Below, one piece after another: positions 908 to 10,675 of a stretch of 64,000 nucleotides of DNA. Both the position numbers and the translations under genes were made by a program. The stretch is from assembly GCA_007695195.1 (NCBI GenBank), contig REEG01000175.1:1-64000 (forward strand), given 5' to 3'. This DNA is from Gemmatimonadales bacterium. GTDB lineage: Bacteria; Gemmatimonadota; Gemmatimonadetes; Longimicrobiales; Gaopeijiaceae. Every line of letters starts with the position of its first letter. Position 1 is the first letter of the stretch. The notes beneath the pieces were generated by a model, which searched no databases, was not told the origin of the DNA, and was given only the letters and a program-made list of their open reading frames with translations.

Positions 908-2749
908 CTACTGGACCGATGCCGCCCCGGCGATCTCCAGAAGCGATCCGGCCAGGGCCCGGATACGGGCCTCGTCGCCTGAGGCCTCACCGGTGGAGAT
1001 GCGACGGGCGTCGGCCCAGAGCCCCACTGCCAGATCGGAGAGAGCCGACCGCTGGGCCGTGCCGCTCAAGCCCTCGGCCCGGTCCATCTCGGCGCGCACG
1101 GCGGCCAGGCGCTGAGCCGGGAGTCCGTCGTGGCGGGCAAGCTGGTCGAAGAAGGCCCGGGCCACCACCATCTCCGCCGGCCAGGTCATGTAGGGCTGGT
1201 GCTGGGGGTTGAACTCGTGGAACCGCACGAGCTTCGCCGCCTCCAGCTCCGCCTCGGTGAGGTGCTCGTTGGGCTCCAACTCCAGGATGTCCAGCCCCCG
1301 GGCGATCTCGGCTCCGTAGATCCGCCCATTCCACCAATACGCCGACCAGTGGCCACCGGTGAAGAGCTGCTCATCGTCCAGGGGACCCCGATCGAAGTAC
1401 GCGATTTCGAAGGGATTCGACGGGTCGGTGAAGTCGAAGACCGAGATCCCACCCTGGTACCAGGCCTGCACCTTGATGTCCCGGCCCGGGACCGGCACCA
1501 GCGAGCCGTTGTGGGCCACGCAGTTCTCCGTATCCGTCTGGGGAACCGGCAGCTTGTAGTAGCTGGTCCGGTGCATGCGCCCGTTCCGGATGGAGAAGAT
1601 GGCGTTGGCGCCCCACTCGGGACGGTCCGTGGCCCGGCAGCGAGGCGAGGTGCCGCCACCCCACTCGTCGGTGAAGATCACCGTCGTCCCGTCGTTGTTG
1701 AAGGTGGCCGAATGCCAGTAGGCGAAGTTCTCGTCGATCACCTCGTCCATGCGGACCGGGTTCACCGGATCCGAAATGTCGAAGAGGATGCCGTTCCCCG
1801 AGCAGGCTCCGGCGGCGATGCCCAGGTGGGGGTAGATGGTGATGTCGTGGCAGTGGTTCGTGGGCGCTGAGCGCTGCGTGTCCTCACCGTGGGGACCACC
1901 GGGCCAGAGACCCGCCACGTCGCCGGTGGCCCGGTCCGCAAAGACCCTGGGCTGGCTGACAATGGCGGCATTCTCCGGAGCCGCCAGGGGCACCCGGATC
2001 ACCTCGATGCGGAAGAGGGAGGTGAGATCCTCCACCTCATCGGGACCCCGGGGCTCACACCCTTCCAACTCGTCACCGGACCGGACGCCGGCGGCGCCGG
2101 AGTTGTAGACGTAGATGTGGTCCGGGTCGTTGGCGTCTTCCAGGAGGGTGTGGGTATGGGATCCCCGGCATGTCTGGACTGCCGCTACTTGCTGAGGCGT
2201 ATCCAGGTTGCTGATGTCGAAGATCCGGATCCCCCGGAACCGCTCGGGATTGACCGGGCCCGGTGCTCCTTCGGGTCCGCAGTCGATGCGGCCCCGGGTC
2301 TGCTCCACCGACATGAAGACCAGGTCGCCGTAGATGGAGACGTCGCCCTGTCCGCCTGGACAGGAGACGGACGAACGCAGGACCGGGTTGGCGGGGTCCG
2401 AAACGTCGTAGATCATGAACCCGCTGAAGTTGCCCACCACCACCAGGTCGCCCTGAAAGGCCAGATCCGAATTGGCCACATTCAGGTTACCCAGATTCTC
2501 GCCGTCGTAGAAGCCGTCGGGACGGGGCGTATTGGAGAGGAGTCGCATGTTCCATGCCGCCTCTTCCGCATCCATCCACCCGGCCGACAGCCCGATCCTG
2601 GGATCGGACTGGTCCCACCAGATCTCCTGGGTTTCCTGTGCCTCACCCGACGAAGGGAGGGTCAGGATCGCGACCATGGTCATGGCCAGGGGGAGGGCGG
2701 CGAGGCGGGCGATGCCGCTCCGGCGCTCATACGAATGTCGTTCGTTCAT
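908..2749 (-). CDS. Exported LVIVD-repeat beta-propeller protein (copy 1)
   Basis: The 613-residue product has a Sec signal peptide (cleavage near GEA-QE, about residue 37). LVIVD-type repeats follow, for example LVVVGNFSGFMIYDVSD and a later ISVFDFTDPSNPFEI, which are expected to build a seven-bladed propeller. Conserved blocks include TNHCHDITIYPH, HSATFNNDGTTVIF and TDEWGGG. A helical C-terminal tail of about 100 residues follows the propeller. The function is unknown; it is probably periplasmic or surface-located. The start at 2749 was preferred over an in-frame ATG at 2761 because GAGG lies six bases upstream of it. It is the last gene of a four-gene minus-strand array in which the same pair (DUF305 then LVIVD) occurs twice; copy 2 is at 3882-5717. 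Histidines and acidic residues in the conserved blocks could bind metal, but this is inference. Confidence 0.8.
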   Translation of the reverse strand: MNERHSYERRSGIARLAALPLAMTMVAILTLPSSGEAQETQEIWWDQSDPRIGLSAGWMDAEEAAWNMRLLSNTPRPDGFYDGENLGNLNVANSDLAFQGDLVVVGNFSGFMIYDVSDPANPVLRSSVSCPGGQGDVSIYGDLVFMSVEQTRGRIDCGPEGAPGPVNPERFRGIRIFDISNLDTPQQVAAVQTCRGSHTHTLLEDANDPDHIYVYNSGAAGVRSGDELEGCEPRGPDEVEDLTSLFRIEVIRVPLAAPENAAIVSQPRVFADRATGDVAGLWPGGPHGEDTQRSAPTNHCHDITIYPHLGIAAGACSGNGILFDISDPVNPVRMDEVIDENFAYWHSATFNNDGTTVIFTDEWGGGTSPRCRATDRPEWGANAIFSIRNGRMHRTSYYKLPVPQTDTENCVAHNGSLVPVPGRDIKVQAWYQGGISVFDFTDPSNPFEIAYFDRGPLDDEQLFTGGHWSAYWWNGRIYGAEIARGLDILELEPNEHLTEAELEAAKLVRFHEFNPQHQPYMTWPAEMVVARAFFDQLARHDGLPAQRLAAVRAEMDRAEGLSGTAQRSALSDLAVGLWADARRISTGEASGDEARIRALAGSLLEIAGAASVQ

Positions 2750-2843
2750 TCCGGACCTCATAAGGAAGGGTATGTTCCAGTGGCAGAGGGTGGCCAGGGC
2801 CGGCCCCTCCGCGTTCCGCGTTGTTCCCGGGCAAGGGCCGGGT

Positions 2844-2886
2844 TCATCTGAGTCCCGGCAGAGCCCGGGTCATCTGAGTCCCGGCA
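2844..2886. repeat. 17-bp direct repeat in the spacer
   Basis: TCATCTGAGTCCCGGCA occurs at 2844-2860 and again at 2870-2886, a 26-bp period. It lies in the spacer between the DUF305 gene (ending 2889) and the downstream LVIVD start (2749). It could be a duplicated operator or simply replication slippage. Confidence 0.6.
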
Positions 2887-2888
2887 TC

Positions 2889-3716
2889 TCAGGATCCCCG
2901 GGCCAGCATCTGCCGCATGCGCTCGATCTCGATGACCTGGTCCGACTCCACGTGGGCGGCGAATCCGAAGATCTCGCCCTCCTGGCCTCCCGCGTCGGAG
3001 GCGAAGAGTTCATGGACCATCTGCACCGCTCCTTCGTGGTGGTAAATCATGAACTCGAGAAAAAGGCGGTCGAACTCCTGGCCGGTCGAGGCCGCCAGGG
3101 ACTCCATCTGGGCGGGAGTCAACATCCCCGCCATCCCGGCGTGGTCATGCCCCATGACGTGGTCAGGCTCCCCATGGTCATGGTCCGGGTCCGGGTCATG
3201 GTGGTGATGGTGGGCGTGGTGCCCATGCCCGTCGTGGTCATGGGCATGACCGTGATCCCCGTGCGGATCTCCGGCCAGAAGCCGCCCTGTGGCCAGGTCC
3301 ACCGGCGGAGCCCACTCTCCCCGATCCTCGAGCCAGCGCCGCATGAGCTCGATCTCGTCGGCCTGGGAGGCCTGGATGCGCCGGGCCAGCATGGCCACAT
3401 CGTCGCGGACGCTGCGCTCGGGCACTAGAGCCGTCATCTCCAGCGCCTGGGCGTGGTGGGCGATCATCATCTGCATGAAGTGCACATCATCGGCGGTGTG
3501 GGCCAGAAGCCCCAGCGCCTGGCCGGGTCGGGTGGCGACGGTCCTGCCGTCGGCCCCGGGGGCTCCCGGCTGGAAGGTCGTCGCTGTCGCCGGAGTGCCG
3601 GACCCGGAAACGGGTGTGCCCGGCGCCGGTCCGGCGGCACACCCCGAGGAGATGAAGAGGAGGCCGGCGGCGAGAGGCCAGGCCCTGAGGAGGGCGTGGG
3701 GGCGAGATGGGATCAT
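2889..3716 (-). CDS. DUF305 lipoprotein with His-rich insertion (copy a)
   Basis: This 275-residue lipoprotein has a signal peptide ending in the lipobox FISSGC (Cys26). The DUF305 fold, a ferritin-like helical domain, is recognisable from two copies of its hallmark: FMQMMIAHHAQAL (residues 80-92) and FMIYHHEGAVQM (about 222-233). Between them, residues 150-193 form a His/Asp/Gly-rich insertion likely to bind divalent metal. Some DUF305 proteins, such as cyanobacterial CopM, bind copper or silver, so a periplasmic metal-scavenging role is reasonable but inferred. The ATG at 3716 was chosen because the signal peptide begins directly there; an upstream in-frame start would add 45 residues of low-complexity sequence. 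The LVIVD copy 1 gene lies 139 bases downstream, and a homologous DUF305 gene is at 5761-6471. Confidence 0.85.
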   Translation of the reverse strand: MIPSRPHALLRAWPLAAGLLFISSGCAAGPAPGTPVSGSGTPATATTFQPGAPGADGRTVATRPGQALGLLAHTADDVHFMQMMIAHHAQALEMTALVPERSVRDDVAMLARRIQASQADEIELMRRWLEDRGEWAPPVDLATGRLLAGDPHGDHGHAHDHDGHGHHAHHHHHDPDPDHDHGEPDHVMGHDHAGMAGMLTPAQMESLAASTGQEFDRLFLEFMIYHHEGAVQMVHELFASDAGGQEGEIFGFAAHVESDQVIEIERMRQMLARGS

Positions 3717-3749
3717 GGGCGCAAATGGGAAAGGACACCGTAACCGGGA

Positions 3750-3784
3750 CCTTCCCCCTCGACCGCACCGGTCGAGGGGGAAGG
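3750..3784. terminator. Perfect 16-bp inverted repeat between the two modules
   Basis: Bases 3750-3765 are the exact reverse complement of 3769-3784, with a three-base loop (CAC). The repeat lies between the stop of LVIVD copy 2 (3882) and the start of the copy-a DUF305 gene (3716). No T-run follows on either strand, so it may be a rho-independent-like terminator, an mRNA-stabilising hairpin or a protein-binding palindrome that separates the modules. Confidence 0.6.
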
Positions 3785-3881
3785 GATGAAGACCGCTACT
3801 GTGTCCATACTCCGGCCAGGGGCGCTGCGATCCCGCCGGCAAGCCCCGCAACCGGAGGCGGCCCCTGTCCGGGACGGCGGC

Positions 3882-5717
3882 TTACATGGCGGTGGCCACA
3901 TCCAGGAGGCCACCGGCCAGGCGACGGACGCGCGTCTCATCACCGGCAACCTCTCCCGTGCTGATGCGACGGGCGTCGGACCACAGCCCGGTGGCCAACT
4001 CACCCAGCGCCGTACGCTTCGCGGCACCGTCAGCCATGGCGTCGATGCGGTCCATCTCCCGGGCGATCTCGCCCAGGCGCGCGGCGGACAGCCCCTGGTG
4101 GCGCTCCAACTGGTCGAAGTAGGCCCGGGCAACAACGAACTCGGGGGGCCAGATCACCCGCGGCTGCATCTGCGGGTTGAATTCGTCGAAGTGGATGAGG
4201 TTGGCCGCGGCGATCTCATTGGCCGAGAGGTGCTCGCTGGGGGTGAGTTCGAGGACGTCGAATCCCCGGGAGATCTCGGAGCCGTAGATGAAGCCGTTGT
4301 GCCAGTAGGTGGACCAGTACCCGCCCGTGAAGAGCTGCTCGTCACTCAGGGGGCCCCGATCGAAGAAGGCGATCTCGTAGGCGTTGGAGGGGTCGGTGAA
4401 GTCGAAGACCGAGACGCCTCCCTGATACCAGGCCTGCACCTTGATGTCCCGACCGGGGACCGGCACCAGCGACCCGTTGTGGGCCACACAGTTCTCGGTT
4501 TCCGTCTGGGGAGCGGGAAGCTTGTAGTACCCGGCGTGGCGCATCCGACCGCCTTCCACGGTGAAGAAGGTGTTGGCCCCCCACTCGGGGAGGTCGGTGG
4601 CCAGGCAGCGCGGCTGGCCGCCGCCGCCCCATTCGTCGGTGAAGATGACGGTGGTCCCGTCGTTGTTGAAGGTGGCCGAGTGCCAGTAGGCGAAGTTCGG
4701 ATCCACCACCTCATGAATCCGCCGGGGAACCGCCGGATTGCTGATATCGAAGAGGATCCCGTTCCCGGAGCAAGCGCCGGCCGCGAGCCCGATCTCCGGG
4801 TAGGCGGTGATGTCGTGACACTGGTTGGTGTCCCGGGTGGTCTGGGTTCCCTCGCCGTGGTCCCCGCCGGTCCAGAGGCCGGCGATGGTGCCTTCCTCCA
4901 CATCGGCGAAGACCCGGGGCGAGTCGATGAGCTCGGCGTTCTGCGGGGCCGACAGCGGCACCCGGATCACGTCGATGCTCCAGTACGACGTGGTGGGATC
5001 TTCGGGATCCCGCACGTTGACGCACCCTTCCATCTCCTCGCCGGACCGGGCCACGCTGGTGCCCGAGTTGTAGACGTACAGCGTCTCGGGATCGTTCAGG
5101 TCCTCCACCAGCGTATGGGTGTGGGACCCCCGGCAGGTCTGGACCGCGGCGATCTGCACCGGGTTGGCGAAGTCGCTCATGTCGAAGATCCGCACGCCCC
5201 GGAACCGCTCCGCCGACACCGCTTCCTCGATGCCCTGGTCACCGCAGTCCAGCCGGCCCCGGGTCTCCTGCGCCGACATGAACACCAGATTCCCGTAGAC
5301 CGAGATGTCTCCCTGACCACCGGCACACTCCACCGACGCCACCAGCACCGGATTCCGGGGGTCGGTGATGTCGTAGACGTTGAAGCCGTGGTAGTTGCCC
5401 ACGTACGCCAGTCCGTCCTGGAAGCCGATGTCGGTGTTGGAGAAGCGACCGTCACCCGGGGTTTCAGGGTTGTAGAACCCCTCGGGCCTGGGGGTGAAGG
5501 AGAGGAGCTCCATATTCCAGGAGGCGGATTCGGCGTCCATCCATCCGGCGCCCAGGCCGATCCGGGGATCGTCCGGTCCTCCGGGAGTGAAGGCCGACTG
5601 GGCCTCCAGGGACGAGGCACCGGCCAGAAGGACCGCGGTAAGCACCATGGCGGGCACCGCGGTTACGGGCCGTGATCGCCGTCGGGTGGGTTCGGTGTGC
5701 GGGGTCAGTCGTGTCAT
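3882..5717 (-). CDS. Exported LVIVD-repeat beta-propeller protein (copy 2)
   Basis: The 611-residue product is a close paralogue of the protein at 908-2749. It shares the mature N-terminus (DPRIGLGAGWMDAES), the CHDIT, HSATFNNDGTTVIF and TDEWGGGG blocks, and the helical tail. The signal peptide runs from MTRLTPHT to SLEAQ. The ATG at 5717 was preferred because the upstream in-frame extension overlaps the DUF305 gene and reads as its antisense shadow. Propeller repeats include LAYVGNYHGFNVYDITD. The DUF305 copy-b gene ends 43 bases upstream, so the two are probably co-transcribed. Codon use resembles its neighbours, so duplication within the genome is more likely than recent import. The function is unknown. 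Confidence 0.8.
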   Translation of the reverse strand: MTRLTPHTEPTRRRSRPVTAVPAMVLTAVLLAGASSLEAQSAFTPGGPDDPRIGLGAGWMDAESASWNMELLSFTPRPEGFYNPETPGDGRFSNTDIGFQDGLAYVGNYHGFNVYDITDPRNPVLVASVECAGGQGDISVYGNLVFMSAQETRGRLDCGDQGIEEAVSAERFRGVRIFDMSDFANPVQIAAVQTCRGSHTHTLVEDLNDPETLYVYNSGTSVARSGEEMEGCVNVRDPEDPTTSYWSIDVIRVPLSAPQNAELIDSPRVFADVEEGTIAGLWTGGDHGEGTQTTRDTNQCHDITAYPEIGLAAGACSGNGILFDISNPAVPRRIHEVVDPNFAYWHSATFNNDGTTVIFTDEWGGGGQPRCLATDLPEWGANTFFTVEGGRMRHAGYYKLPAPQTETENCVAHNGSLVPVPGRDIKVQAWYQGGVSVFDFTDPSNAYEIAFFDRGPLSDEQLFTGGYWSTYWHNGFIYGSEISRGFDVLELTPSEHLSANEIAAANLIHFDEFNPQMQPRVIWPPEFVVARAYFDQLERHQGLSAARLGEIAREMDRIDAMADGAAKRTALGELATGLWSDARRISTGEVAGDETRVRRLAGGLLDVATAM

Positions 5718-5760
5718 GGGTTCCAGGGAAGGAGGGTTGAGGGGCGGAAGAGCCCGGCTA

Positions 5761-6471
5761 TCAATTGGTTTCCCGGAGAAGCCGAAGCATCCGGACGATC
5801 TCCATGCGCTGATCGCTGTCCACGTGGGAAGCAAACTGGAAGATGTCCGACTCCTGTCCGGCGCCCGGTGTGGCGAAGAGATCTTCCACCATGATGAGGG
5901 CACCCTCGTGGTGGAAGATCATGAACTGCAGAAAGAGGCGTTCGAACTCGGCTCCGTGGGATGCGGCGAGGCGATCCAACTCCTCATCGGTGAGCATCCC
6001 CGCCATCTCCGAGTGATCGTGGTGGCCGTGATCCCCGTGATGGGCGTGCTCCTCCTCATGGTGGCCATGATGGTGCTCATGGTCCGCGTGGTCCGCGTGG
6101 TCCCCATGGTCCCCATGCTCTGCGTGATCCTCTTCCAATGGGTCGTAGAGGCGAACCTCGGGGATCTCTTCCCCACGCTCCTCGAGCCACCGGGTCATGA
6201 TTCGGATCTCGTCGTCCTGGGACCGGTCAATGCGCTGCGCCAGAAGCCGAAGCTCCCGCCGGTCCGTCCGTTCGTCCACCATCCGCGCCATGATCAGGGC
6301 CTGGGCGTGGTGATGGATCATGTCCTGCATGAAGCGGACGTCTGCGGAATGATACGGGGCGCCGGTGGCCGGGAACTGGGCCGACGCCGTTCCCGGGAGA
6401 AAGGCCGGCAACAGGACCAGGGCCGCCAGAACCGGAAGGGTTCGGAGGGGGTGGGGGAGGGAGGGACCCAT
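5761..6471 (-). CDS. DUF305 protein with His-rich insertion (copy b)
   Basis: This 236-residue exported protein has a cleavable signal peptide (GTASA-QF, about residue 31) instead of the lipobox seen in copy a. It shows both DUF305 hallmarks: FMQDMIHHHAQALIMA (residues 48-63) and FMIFHHEGALIM (183-194). A His/Glu/Asp-rich stretch occupies residues 115-153 between them. The insertion differs in sequence from that of copy a although the flanking helices are alike, as expected if only metal-binding composition is selected. The ATG at 6471 directly precedes the signal peptide; an alternative at 6534 would add 21 residues. It is the first gene of the array. A role in copper, silver or other metal binding is inferred from the family. 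Confidence 0.85.
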   Translation of the reverse strand: MGPSLPHPLRTLPVLAALVLLPAFLPGTASAQFPATGAPYHSADVRFMQDMIHHHAQALIMARMVDERTDRRELRLLAQRIDRSQDDEIRIMTRWLEERGEEIPEVRLYDPLEEDHAEHGDHGDHADHADHEHHHGHHEEEHAHHGDHGHHDHSEMAGMLTDEELDRLAASHGAEFERLFLQFMIFHHEGALIMVEDLFATPGAGQESDIFQFASHVDSDQRMEIVRMLRLLRETN

Positions 6472-6655: not shown

Positions 6656-7579
6656 TCAGCGCATTTCGCCTGGCGGTCCGGCATTCACCTGGAGGTCCAG
6701 CACCTTCAACTCGATCTGGATGCGCTCTCCGGAGAGGGCACCCTCCAGCATCCGGATCTGGTCACCCATCATCTGCTCCATCATGGCCCGCTGGGCTTCC
6801 GGCATGACCTCGAGCTGTCGCCGAAGTTCGTCGAGACCGGCCCGGGCCTGCGCCACCTCATCGGCAGAGAGACCGGCCTGCGCCAGGTCCACCTCGAGGA
6901 CCGAGAGGAAGGGGTGCAGGTAGCCATTCACCTCCCGGTAATCGGAGAAGCGCGCTTCCACGGCGACGGGTCTGCGCTCTCCCCCATCCACCACCTCTCC
7001 TTCCAGCCACATGTGAAGGGGGATGTGTCGGTCCTGCTCGAGCTCCAGCCGGATGCTCCGGGGGTGGAAGGGCGTGTCATCGCCGGGGAGGGTGGCGTCC
7101 CAGGTCAGGCCCTCGAAATCCGTGAGCGACATCTGCCAGGTGGCGCGTCCCTCCACCGAACCGCTCCCGTCCAGGGTCCATCGCTCCAGGGCGTCACCGA
7201 ACAGGCCGGCGGGATCGGACCAGAGCTCTCCGGTCACATCGCCGGGGTCCATGCCTCCCGGGATCCCCGCCGCATCCACGGACCGGCTCCGGAGCACGGG
7301 GCGACCATCCACCATCTCCTTCTCCATGAAGACGACGGAGGGGAAGCCCAGCACCTCCTGCCGGATGGTGAGGTCATCCACGCCGCTCAGGCGTGCTTCA
7401 TGGGCGGCGAGCGCCCGTTCCAGGATATCGCTGGGGGCCTGAGCCGCTACGGCTCCCGGGACGGCAACCACGCCCAGGAGCACGAGACCCACTCCGAAAC
7501 CGCCGGCGGGGGCGAGGGCTGGGAAAACCCGTGGGAGGCGACGGCCCACAGCGCTGGACATCAAAGACGGAGAAGGCAT
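6656..7579 (-). CDS. Exported protein of unknown function, possibly LolA-like fold
   Basis: The 307-residue product has a signal peptide ending near AVAAQ (about residue 46). The mature part has alternating short beta-strand-like stretches (LGFPSVVFMEKEMVDG, WQMSLTDFEGLTW, HIPLHMWLEGEVV). A methionine/glutamine-rich helical end follows (MPEAQRAMMEQMMGDQ). The arrangement is reminiscent of lipoprotein-carrier-like exported proteins that have an outer-membrane-lipoprotein-sorting type sheet, but I do not recognise the family with certainty. The start at 7579 gives a long n-region; an ATG at 7561 is a good alternative. It lies downstream of the lipoprotein gene at 7757-8935 on the same strand, about 180 bases apart. 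Confidence 0.6.
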   Translation of the reverse strand: MPSPSLMSSAVGRRLPRVFPALAPAGGFGVGLVLLGVVAVPGAVAAQAPSDILERALAAHEARLSGVDDLTIRQEVLGFPSVVFMEKEMVDGRPVLRSRSVDAAGIPGGMDPGDVTGELWSDPAGLFGDALERWTLDGSGSVEGRATWQMSLTDFEGLTWDATLPGDDTPFHPRSIRLELEQDRHIPLHMWLEGEVVDGGERRPVAVEARFSDYREVNGYLHPFLSVLEVDLAQAGLSADEVAQARAGLDELRRQLEVMPEAQRAMMEQMMGDQIRMLEGALSGERIQIELKVLDLQVNAGPPGEMR

Positions 7580-7756
7580 CACGAACGATCCTCGGAAGAA
7601 GGGCGGGGAGTCCTTTCCCACTCACCTGACACGGGCCGGCCGGGCAGGCCGGGGCCTGCAAGCAGCATCCCGGGGGAAGCGAACTCCCTTGGAGAACTTG
7701 GACCAGATGCCGGGTTCTATGCTTCCGGACCCGGGAAGGATCCCGAAGGGGTTTCC

Positions 7757-8935
7757 CTACCTGCCGTCAGGGGCCACTACCTGGAAGGGGAGTTCGGCGT
7801 TGAGGGTCCCATCAAGGGTCTCCACCTCCACGCGAAGGCGGTATGCCCCAGGGGTTCGGGGGGCCTCGATTCCTTCTTCGAAGTCAAGTCCCACCTCTCC
7901 GGCCCCGAGGTGGACCTCACCCAGAACCTGCGCGAAGGCCCGATCCTCGGACCAGCGATGGATCACGTCGTCATCTTTCAAGACTACCAGGTCGAAGCGC
8001 TGGGCCGTGGCGAAGCGGAGGGTCGTCTCCACCTGCATCCGGTTCACCAAACGGAGGGCGACGCGCATGGAATCGCCGGGGGCATAGGTGAGTCGGTCCG
8101 CGGAGAGCATGACCTGGATCCCCTCGGTGGGGTCCGGCGCGGCAGAGGCGGGGAGGCCGGCCCCGGCGGAGGCTTCCCCGGGATCCATGACCCGGACATT
8201 CTCAAGTTCCACCACGGACACCAGGCTCAGATCGGGGGACCCGAGGAGTACCGGATAGTCGGCGATGTCGTCGACGTGGGGGTCGGCGGTGAAATTTTCC
8301 CAGTCCTGGAGGAGTAGCCCCCCCACCTCCCGCCGATTCACTGCTCGGCGAAAGCGGCTTCCCCCGTCGCCCGTATGGAATCGGTAGGCCAGATAGTCCA
8401 GGGTATTCCCGTCGCGGTGAAACCAGTAGACGAACCGATCTTCCCAGTCCTGCCCTCCCCCATCTTCCTCGAACGTCACCTCCACCACCCGATAGGGTTC
8501 CTCACCGATTCGCGTTTCTCCCAGATCCCGGTGCCGCGCCGCCGGGTCCAGTAGGCGGAAGGGGAGGAAGCCGAAGTAGACCACCGAATTGACGGCGGTC
8601 TCGAGGGCGGCGAGTTCCGAGTCATCCAGGGGAACCGGTTGTCCATCCACCTCCCGACCGGTCTCCTGGTTGGTCATCCAGTCTCGGATTGATGCACCAT
8701 CCTGCCGATACTTACGTTCATAGAGGAATCGGCCGTCGTCCCGAACAACCCGATAGGTGTCACCCCGGAAATCGAAGTGGACTTCCATGCGATCAAAGCG
8801 TTCTCCTCCATGCCGCTGGATGGCCTGCTCCACAGTCCGTTCCGGCGTGGAACCCCCGTCGCACCCCTGAGCGGCGACCAGGAGGATCGCAATGCCAAGG
8901 AGTCGGACAACGGATGACGTGGATGGACGGACCAA
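7757..8935 (-). CDS. Lipoprotein with DUF6503-like and BsuPI-like domains
   Basis: The product is 392 residues if read from a TTG at 8935. That start has GAGGT eight bases upstream and gives a compact lipoprotein signal ending in VAAQGC (Cys25). The in-frame ATG at 9016 would give a 51-residue signal region and overlap the divergent gene. The N-terminal two-thirds (RTVEQAIQRHGGERFDRMEV, then repeated beta-strand segments with VYWFHRDGNTLDYLAYRF) resembles the DUF6503 family of exported proteins. The last 100 residues (YAPGDSMRVALRLVN, LVVLKDDDVIHRWSE) match the pattern of the BsuPI intracellular proteinase-inhibitor domain, an immunoglobulin-like fold. The function is unknown; it probably sits on the inner face of the outer membrane or in the periplasm. 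Confidence 0.65.
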   Translation of the reverse strand: MVRPSTSSVVRLLGIAILLVAAQGCDGGSTPERTVEQAIQRHGGERFDRMEVHFDFRGDTYRVVRDDGRFLYERKYRQDGASIRDWMTNQETGREVDGQPVPLDDSELAALETAVNSVVYFGFLPFRLLDPAARHRDLGETRIGEEPYRVVEVTFEEDGGGQDWEDRFVYWFHRDGNTLDYLAYRFHTGDGGSRFRRAVNRREVGGLLLQDWENFTADPHVDDIADYPVLLGSPDLSLVSVVELENVRVMDPGEASAGAGLPASAAPDPTEGIQVMLSADRLTYAPGDSMRVALRLVNRMQVETTLRFATAQRFDLVVLKDDDVIHRWSEDRAFAQVLGEVHLGAGEVGLDFEEGIEAPRTPGAYRLRVEVETLDGTLNAELPFQVVAPDGR

Positions 8936-9028
8936 GAGCTTGACCTCGGTGAGGGGGTGGGCGGGTGCAGGGCGCCCGAGACCCCTCGCGGGCGATCCCT
9001 TCGACTGCACTGCCATGTCGGGGCCTTG

Positions 9029-10675
9029 ATGAACGGTGACGAACAGCGAAAGCGTTTCGTCGTGAGGGATTCCGGTGGCCGGGAGCGATCCCTGGCCACG
9101 GTGGAAGACCTCCATGACGAGGTGGCGGCCGGTCGTATCGGAGTCGAAGATGAGGTTTTCGATTCCAGTACGGGCGCGTGGTCCCCTGCGGGAAAGATAC
9201 CCGTCTTCCAGTTCATCGTCGAGGAGTTGGAGGCCGAGGGAAGGCTTCCGGAGCGCTTGAAGGCACCGGAAACACCGGAAACACCGGAAACACCGGAGGT
9301 GCCGGTGCGTCCGGACCCTGCCCGGAGCTCGGGTGAAGCGCAGTCGGCAAGACGGGACCGGGATCCCTTCGACCTCTCCCTCGATTTGGTGGATTCGGGG
9401 CCACCGGTTCCCGGCCCTGACGAAGGCGAGTCCGGCGGTGGACCGTCTGCGGACGAGCCAGCCGCTGTCCGCCCTGCCCGCGATGCCTCCAGGGAAGGCA
9501 ACGATGCTCGTGACGGAGACGGAACCGAAGCTCCTCTCAAGGTGCAGGTGAAGCCCGAGGACCTTCTACGCCCGGCGGATGAGGACGACTTCAACATCCA
9601 GCCCGGGAGCGCACTGGACGAGGATTGGCAGGCACTGAGCCGGGTGGATTCTTCCGTTCGGGACAGGGGGCGCGAAGCTGGCCTGGACCGCACCGAGTCC
9701 AAGGGGGATCGAAGATTCCGTGAGCCGGAAGAAGAGGCTCGCCATTCCCTCCGAGGGTCGGATCCGTCGGACAGGGCCGATCCCGGTGATGACGAGGCCG
9801 TCCCGTGGCAACCAGATACCGGAGATCAATCCACCGAGGCGTCGCCCAAGGCGGGGGAGACCCCGTCGCCCCGTCGCATATCGGCGCCCTTGGCGAAGCG
9901 TGGTTCGGGCGGACTCCTGGCCGCTGTGGTGGGCGGTGTGCTGCTTCTGGTGGGAGGAGGATGGTTCCTTCTCACCGGCGGGCAGGGCAATGAACCGGAC
10001 CGGACGGTGCTTGAGGCCCCTGTGCCCGCCCCTGCGCCTCCACCTTCCGCGCCGCCGCCCCCGGCCGGAGCCGAAGACCGGGTGCCGGCGGGTCTCCAGG
10101 GCGTGGAAGACCGCTTCCGAATGGTGATGGATTCACTCCGTGCCGAACTGGATCTGGCGCCCGCTCCTCCTCGGGAGTGGCTGAGCGGCGCCTACCTGGC
10201 CGATGCCGCCGCCTTCCCCCAGGTACGGGGATTCTGGGAGGGGTACCAGGAGTTCCTGCGCCGAATGCAGCCTCTCGATGGAAAGACGTATCTCGAGGGA
10301 GTCGAGATGGGCCTTGAGGCTGAGGACAACGGCGGGAATCCGCCGGTCAGCGCGTATTTCCAGGAGCGGTACAGCGGCCTGCGCTCCTACCGCATGGCCC
10401 GGTACGAGAGCCTCGCCGCCGTGACCCGGGCGGCCCTCAACCTCCACGATGTGCTGGCGCGGCATCGTGCGGAGATCTCCTTCTCTCCAGCGGTGGGCCG
10501 TGGTGTCTCGGCCGATCCCATCCTGGAGGCGGTGATCCCCGACGGCCCGGTGCGCCGGGAGGTGGAGGCCGCTCTGGACCAGGTCTTCCGGGCCCTGGAT
10601 CGATCGCGGGGCGGCGGCGTTCCTACCATGGACGGGCTTCGCTCGGAACTCTTCGAGCGATTCGGCGAGGGTTAG
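9029..10675 (+). CDS. Single-pass membrane protein with GYF-like N-terminal domain
   Basis: The 548-residue product starts at the ATG at 9029. Residues 10-65 (FVVRDSGGRERS, then LHDEVAAGRIGVEDEVFDS and GAWSPAGKIP) follow the pattern of the GYF_2/DUF4339 domain, a cytoplasmic module thought to recognise proline-rich peptides. A long acidic, low-complexity region follows, including an ETP repeat. One transmembrane helix lies at about residues 295-317 (GGLLAAVVGGVLLLVGGG), then a Pro/Ala linker and a helical, probably periplasmic, domain of about 190 residues. No enzyme motif is visible. Its stop overlaps the stop of the convergent gene by four bases (shared TTAG). A scaffold or sensor role is inference. 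Confidence 0.7.
   Translation: MNGDEQRKRFVVRDSGGRERSLATVEDLHDEVAAGRIGVEDEVFDSSTGAWSPAGKIPVFQFIVEELEAEGRLPERLKAPETPETPETPEVPVRPDPARSSGEAQSARRDRDPFDLSLDLVDSGPPVPGPDEGESGGGPSADEPAAVRPARDASREGNDARDGDGTEAPLKVQVKPEDLLRPADEDDFNIQPGSALDEDWQALSRVDSSVRDRGREAGLDRTESKGDRRFREPEEEARHSLRGSDPSDRADPGDDEAVPWQPDTGDQSTEASPKAGETPSPRRISAPLAKRGSGGLLAAVVGGVLLLVGGGWFLLTGGQGNEPDRTVLEAPVPAPAPPPSAPPPPAGAEDRVPAGLQGVEDRFRMVMDSLRAELDLAPAPPREWLSGAYLADAAAFPQVRGFWEGYQEFLRRMQPLDGKTYLEGVEMGLEAEDNGGNPPVSAYFQERYSGLRSYRMARYESLAAVTRAALNLHDVLARHRAEISFSPAVGRGVSADPILEAVIPDGPVRREVEAALDQVFRALDRSRGGGVPTMDGLRSELFERFGEG
9264..9299 (+). repeat. Nine-base tandem repeat (caccggaaa, about four copies)
   Basis: Three exact copies of CACCGGAAA at 9264-9290 and a fourth imperfect copy at 9291-9299 encode the ETP-ETP-ETP stretch of the surrounding protein. 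The copy number could vary by slippage without breaking the frame. Confidence 0.75.

What the first reader, a model, noticed from the sequence alone, without database searches (positions are those of the whole stretch)
908..6471. Tandem duplication of a DUF305 / LVIVD-propeller module with divergent His-rich metal loops
The same gene pair (a helical DUF305 protein with a His-rich insertion, then a large exported LVIVD propeller) occurs twice in a row on one strand. The propellers are close paralogues across their full length. The DUF305 helices are conserved while their His-rich insertions differ, and one copy is a lipoprotein while the other has a cleavable signal. Preservation of the pair through duplication suggests that the two proteins work as a unit, perhaps in metal capture or sensing at the cell envelope. 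I know of no described system with this composition.
Basis: partly seen in the sequence, partly recalled or inferred. Interest (0 to 1): 0.62.

Follow-up and report, generated by a model that had tools for sequence, protein, structure and literature searches.

The report
Paired copper-chaperone-like and propeller protein genes
Two neighbouring copies of a two-gene cassette, a CopM-like metal-binding protein followed by an exported seven-bladed propeller with a strictly conserved histidine/acid site, belong to an apparently undescribed gene pair that stays together in several bacterial groups and probably forms a metal-dependent exported enzyme with its metal supplier.

Summary
On the minus strand lie DUF305-B, LVIVD-B, DUF305-A and LVIVD-A (6471 down to 908). 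The genome, a soda-lake-type Gemmatimonadota MAG, has six DUF305 genes and six long LVIVD genes, forming six pairs. In 57 related genomes, 94 of 100 strong DUF305 hits lie within 1 kb of such an LVIVD gene, 93 of them upstream on the same strand. In Actinomycetota the pair is divergent. No third gene is conserved.

It is not a recent tandem duplication. A and B are old cassettes, each with orthologues in congeners. DUF305 and LVIVD trees agree (distance r = 0.88, permutation maximum 0.22).

The variable His-rich loops are lineage-specific. The constant features are two MxxHH motifs, as in the copper protein CopM, and in the propeller an axial set (H199, H301, H346, H413, D361/E362) invariant in 119 sequences. 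The LVIVD-B model (pLDDT 91) best matches a binuclear-metal propeller phosphotriesterase.

Most likely the DUF305 protein holds copper (or another metal) and supplies a metal-dependent exported propeller enzyme, as senC is thought to serve the copper-dependent methanethiol oxidase. The unit is well supported. The metal, the transfer and the substrate are inferred.

The parts
5761..6471 (-). DUF305-B: exported CopM-type tandem DUF305 protein, 236 aa, signal peptide ending ..TASA
   Evidence: PF03713 5e-36; CopM PDB 5fej 4e-11 by single sequence, family profile 4e-26
6307..6321 (-). first MxxHH motif of DUF305-B (M51..H54 H55)
   Evidence: invariant in A2; MxxHH is the copper(II) motif of CopM (PMC11836926)
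6013..6126 (-). His-rich linker of DUF305-B, between the two DUF305 halves
   Evidence: 18 His; falls in the inter-domain linker where CopM has its GMMGMHQGHGMMAMD copper-binding segment
5908..5922 (-). second MxxHH motif of DUF305-B (M184..H187 H188)
   Evidence: invariant in A2; aligned with the second CopM motif
3882..5717 (-). LVIVD-B: exported seven-bladed propeller (about residues 62-491) with C-terminal helical domain (about 527-610), 611 aa
   Evidence: AlphaFold2 pLDDT 91.4, pTM 0.89; best PDB fold match 5hrm, E 6e-14
5121..5123 (-). H199, start of innermost strand of blade 3
   Evidence: 119/119; register secondary structure
4815..4817 (-). H301, start of innermost strand of blade 4
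   Evidence: 119/119
4680..4682 (-). H346 (YWHS motif), blade 5
   Evidence: 119/119; aligned to choice_anch_B His
4632..4637 (-). D361-E362, end of second strand of blade 5
   Evidence: 119/119; aligned to DE of choice_anch_B
4479..4481 (-). H413 (CVAHNGS motif), blade 6
   Evidence: 119/119; aligned to DHN of choice_anch_B
3750..3784 (.). perfect 16-bp inverted repeat, 3-nt loop, between cassette B and cassette A; possible transcript boundary
   Evidence: RNA fold of the 165-nt gap z = -3.2; no T run, so not a classical terminator
2889..3716 (-). DUF305-A: CopM-type tandem DUF305 lipoprotein, 275 aa
   Evidence: PF03713 4e-39; lipobox LFISSGC read by eye
3453..3467 (-). first MxxHH motif of DUF305-A (M84..H87 H88)
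   Evidence: sequence; alignment A2
3141..3263 (-). His-rich linker of DUF305-A
   Evidence: 18 His
3036..3050 (-). second MxxHH motif of DUF305-A (M223..H226 H227)
   Evidence: sequence; alignment A2
908..2761 (-). LVIVD-A: exported propeller, 617 aa, 65% identical to LVIVD-B
   Evidence: PF08309 9e-6, 25.4 bits over cut-off 20.2

Best explanation
The window carries two old copies of a conserved two-gene cassette. Gene 1 encodes an exported CopM-type DUF305 protein that binds copper (or a similar soft metal) through two MxxHH sites, assisted by a Met/His-rich linker that in this lineage has expanded into a His-rich loop. Gene 2 encodes an exported, disulfide-stabilised seven-bladed propeller whose central channel has a metal site made of His from blades 3-6 plus Asp/Glu. 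The DUF305 protein captures and hands metal to the propeller, or keeps it loaded, and the propeller is the working metal-dependent enzyme (an oxidase or hydrolase of unknown substrate). Shown: pairing, co-divergence, CopM homology and motifs, propeller model, invariant axial residues. Inferred: that the propeller binds metal, that the metal is copper, the hand-over, and catalysis.
For: Pairing: 94 of 100 strong DUF305 hits within 1 kb of a long LVIVD gene in 57 genomes; all six DUF305 and six LVIVD of the own genome paired; Fisher p = 1e-8 for genome co-occurrence; paired but divergent in Microbispora, Planotetraspora and Nonomuraea; median gap 55 nt; no third conserved neighbour. Co-divergence: r = 0.88 against permutation maximum 0.22; both trees place A and B in separate orthologous groups. 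DUF305: all 43 members hit CopM NF049983; profile matches 5fej at 4e-26 with both MxxHH motifs aligned. Propeller: pLDDT 91.4; best fold match 5hrm, described in its paper's title as a binuclear metal centre in a seven-bladed propeller (Mabanglo 2016, cited in PMC11656708); H199, H301, H346, H413, D361, E362 in 119/119 sequences; invariant polar residues concentrate at the channel top, 27 of 44 against 30% expected, p = 1.4e-5. Precedent: mtoX, a copper-dependent propeller oxidase, lies beside copper chaperone gene SCO1/senC (PMC5739008), and SELENBP1 needs copper through His/Asp/Glu in its propeller cavity (PMC10362175).
Against: No metal, interaction or activity data. No atomic coordinates could be inspected, so that the invariant residues meet in one site rests on blade register. 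The 5hrm match is modest (TM 0.47-0.57, 14% identity) and the sequence alignment to it is only stable in blades 6-7. DUF305 proteins score 52-56 bits against the CopM equivalog cut-off of 90. Five LVIVD genes with open upstream sequence have no DUF305 gene next to them yet keep the invariant residues, so the partner can be dispensable or supplied in trans.
Confidence: 0.58

Rival explanations
1. The propeller is a metal-dependent hydrolase related to the Sphingobium phosphotriesterase, with Mn or Zn rather than copper, and DUF305 supplies or buffers that metal.
For: 5hrm is by far the best fold match (6e-14, other folds about 1e-8). Shared WHS...E motif in blade 5 by eye (sequence; H376 and E394 there).
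Against: CopM-type MxxHH/Met sites favour copper or silver (PMC4335983, PMC11836926). Full-length sequence alignment to the phosphotriesterase is unstable.
Confidence: 0.2
2. The pair is a metal capture or sequestration system: the propeller is a docking or binding protein and not an enzyme, and the cassette protects the envelope from copper or silver.
For: CopM is a copper-resistance protein found in periplasm and outside the cell (PMC4335983). Expanded His loops in this lineage. Six cassettes in this genome.
Against: No efflux, regulator or other resistance gene is conserved beside the pair. Invariant acids and His at the channel top look like an active site.
Confidence: 0.15
3. The genes are neighbours by shared ancestry alone, with no functional link between the proteins.
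For: Related genomes inherit gene order, and mirror-tree correlation is partly due to species phylogeny.
Against: Six pairs in one genome, retained across several bacterial groups, with the orientation changed in Actinomycetota and no other neighbour kept.
Confidence: 0.04

Closest known systems
CopM (DUF305) of Synechocystis, copMRS operon
   Same: Exported tandem DUF305 fold, two MxxHH motifs with nearby Met, Met/His-containing linker between halves.
   Different: CopM is encoded with the two-component system CopRS; here the partner is an LVIVD propeller. Below the NCBIfam CopM cut-off.
choice-of-anchor B family (TIGR04312)
   Same: Homologous propeller over blades 1-7 (hhalign 96.6%), with H346, D361/E362 and H413 aligned.
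   Different: Below the family cut-off (62 vs 100 bits). The bona fide member in this genome (G000:C300:8763-9914) is not next to DUF305. The cassette family has eight conserved Cys and a C-terminal helical domain.
Sphingobium phosphotriesterase Sb-PTE (PDB 5hrm)
   Same: Best fold match; seven-bladed propeller with a metal site; blade-5 WHS...E motif by eye.
   Different: No DUF305 partner at the Sphingobium locus viewed; 14% identity; different Cys pattern.
SBP56 / methanethiol oxidase with SCO1/senC (mtoX locus)
   Same: Same logic: copper-dependent seven-bladed propeller encoded beside a copper chaperone gene (PMC5739008).
   Different: Different propeller family (no SBP56 Pfam hit) and different chaperone family (DUF305, not SCO1).

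Membership tests
DUF305 (PF03713) | Profile match over the curated cut-off | tested here: met
   134 and 124 bits against 27
CopM metallochaperone (NF049983) | Score over equivalog cut-off 90 | tested here: not met
   51.7 and 56.3 bits
CopM metallochaperone (NF049983) | Two DUF305 halves each with an MxxHH motif | tested here: met
CopM metallochaperone (NF049983) | Copper binding, copper induction | not testable with these tools
   needs protein and cells
LVIVD repeat (PF08309) | Profile match over cut-off 20.2 | tested here: inconclusive
   LVIVD-A 25.4 (over), LVIVD-B 17.4 (under)
choice-of-anchor B (TIGR04312) | Score over cut-off 100 | tested here: not met
   51.4 and 62.1 bits; all 75 relatives hit it at E 0.001 or better
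Sb-PTE-type phosphotriesterase | Seven-bladed propeller fold | tested here: met
Sb-PTE-type phosphotriesterase | Same metal-ligand residues | tested here: inconclusive
   WHS...E motif shared by eye; automatic alignments disagree; ligand numbers (His389, Glu407, His475) are recalled from memory, and three of six recalled ones fit the gene at one offset
SBP56 / methanethiol oxidase | SBP56 profile match | tested here: not met
   no hit at E 0.01
SBP56 / methanethiol oxidase | Methanethiol oxidase activity, copper content | not testable with these tools
   needs protein

The most novel reading that the evidence does not exclude
A widespread, undescribed class of exported metalloenzyme: LVIVD/choice-of-anchor propellers with an axial His4-Asp/Glu copper site, each loaded by its own dedicated CopM-type DUF305 chaperone. 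This would give DUF305 a general role as a copper-insertion protein rather than only a resistance protein.
Probability: 0.35. Interest if true: 0.78.

Novelty: new variant of a known kind. Interest (0 to 1): 0.58.

Why it matters
DUF305 and the LVIVD propellers are both large families with little known function. A near-obligate pairing across several bacterial groups gives each a testable partner and site: does DUF305 load the propeller with metal, and what reaction does the propeller carry out? Six cassettes in one Gemmatimonadota genome suggests a substantial envelope activity that has been overlooked. No paper in the held open-access library mentions both families.

Tried and rejected
Sequence search of LVIVD-B against PDB: no hit. 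Searching conserved third genes: none. Looking for DUF305-LVIVD fusions: none. Profile alignment to Sb-PTE over the full length: only blades 6-7 stable, so equivalence of metal ligands is not claimed. Searching 97 genomes for Sb-PTE relatives gave only weak hits. AlphaFold2 of DUF305-B, mistakenly run without an alignment, was useless (pLDDT 43) and is not used. Promoter and terminator scans found nothing. The recent-duplication reading was rejected on trees.

Full report
What is there. On the minus strand, from 6471 down to 908, the window encodes DUF305-B (236 aa), LVIVD-B (611 aa), DUF305-A (275 aa) and LVIVD-A (617 aa). DUF305 matches are unambiguous and LVIVD matches are weak. LVIVD-A and LVIVD-B share 65% identity, the DUF305 proteins 47%. 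All four begin with export signals; DUF305-A has a lipobox (by eye). A perfect 16-bp hairpin at 3750-3784 separates the cassettes.

The pair is the unit. The genome has six DUF305 genes and six long LVIVD genes, and they form six pairs on five contigs. In 57 genomes (this one and relatives, mostly of its family and order), 94 of 100 strong DUF305 hits lie within 1 kb of a long LVIVD gene, 93 of them upstream on the same strand; several of the six exceptions sit at the start of a contig (contig lengths were not checked for all, and the LVIVD list was cut at its weak end). By genome, 46 have both, 9 neither, 1 only LVIVD, 1 only DUF305 (counted by hand, weak LVIVD hits not counted; Fisher p = 1e-8). 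Loci found by homology in GTDB genomes show the same in Gemmatimonadota, Rhodothermales, an Acidobacteria MAG and others. In Microbispora, Planotetraspora and Nonomuraea the genes are divergent but still adjacent; there only some of the many DUF305 genes are so paired. No other neighbour is conserved. A few LVIVD genes lack the partner.

Not a recent duplication. Distances in the DUF305 and LVIVD trees correlate at 0.88 (permutation maximum 0.22; part of this reflects species phylogeny). Each of A and B groups with orthologues in other species, in both trees, and their common ancestor also includes other paralogues and other genera. Two congeneric genomes also carry two adjacent pairs (G001:C292, G004:C335). 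So two old cassettes sit side by side.

DUF305 protein. All 43 aligned members hit the CopM metallochaperone model, and their profile matches CopM structures over both halves. Both halves keep MxxHH with further Met residues. In CopM the MxxHH peptide binds copper(II) strongly and the linker between halves is a second site (PMC11836926); CopM binds copper and contributes to copper resistance in the periplasm and outside the cell (PMC4335983). It is variable: 0-40 His, median 3, and 8 or more in 21 of 96. It is therefore an elaboration, not the core.

LVIVD protein. Eight Cys are conserved in the main group, consistent with disulfides outside the cytoplasm. His199, His301, His346 and His413, at the same position at the start of the innermost strand of blades 3, 4, 5 and 6, and Asp361-Glu362 are invariant in 119 sequences including Actinomycetota. 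Invariant polar residues are enriched at the channel top (27 of 44, p = 1.4e-5; the strand boundaries were taken from the model and the test is simple). The best structure match is the Sphingobium phosphotriesterase 5hrm (6e-14), a metal-centre propeller. A choice-of-anchor B protein of the same genome aligns over the propeller with His346, Asp361/Glu362 and His413 matched.

Mechanism. The best reading is a metal supplier and a metal-dependent exported propeller. The closest precedent is mtoX with SCO1/senC (PMC5739008), and SELENBP1 shows that His/Asp/Glu in a propeller cavity can be a copper site required for oxidase activity (PMC10362175). Copper is favoured by the CopM relationship, but Mn or Zn hydrolase chemistry as in the phosphotriesterase is a real rival. 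Nothing here shows metal binding, hand-over or substrate.

Novelty. Neither component is new as a fold. The pairing, its breadth, and the axial site are, as far as the held open-access library shows, undescribed. That library lacks most subscription papers, so prior mention elsewhere cannot be excluded.

Noticed in passing
window 3750-3784: Perfect 16-bp inverted repeat with 3-nt loop between the two cassettes, unique in the window, without a T run.
   Followed up: partly
window 2834-2885: Two tandem copies of a 26-nt repeat (88% identical) in the gap between DUF305-A and LVIVD-A.
   Followed up: no
L164 (G000:C300:8763-9914): A full choice-of-anchor B propeller (408 bits) on the same contig as another DUF305-LVIVD pair, about 12.5 kb away, not paired itself, yet with the same His/DE motifs.
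   Followed up: partly
L124:5091-8762 (Nonomuraea gerenzanensis): One DUF305 lipoprotein gene divergent from two successive shorter LVIVD genes; in the second, the His at position 201 is Leu while the other axial residues are kept.
   Followed up: partly
L144 (G029:C1:1726500-1735500): Three LVIVD genes in a row with a single DUF305 gene.
   Followed up: no
G004:C335:5950-6480: A DUF305 match whose frame is flagged with one in-frame TGA; possible frame or assembly error.
   Followed up: no
window 6656-7621 and 7757-9115, minus strand: Upstream exported protein with no known family, then a DUF6503 + BsuPI-domain protein; no neighbour was found to be conserved beside the pair elsewhere.
   Followed up: no
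L058, L062, L072, L073, L079, L089: Close LVIVD relatives on contigs labelled Gammaproteobacteria or Rhodospirillaceae MAGs; may be misbinned Gemmatimonadota contigs or transfer.
   Followed up: no
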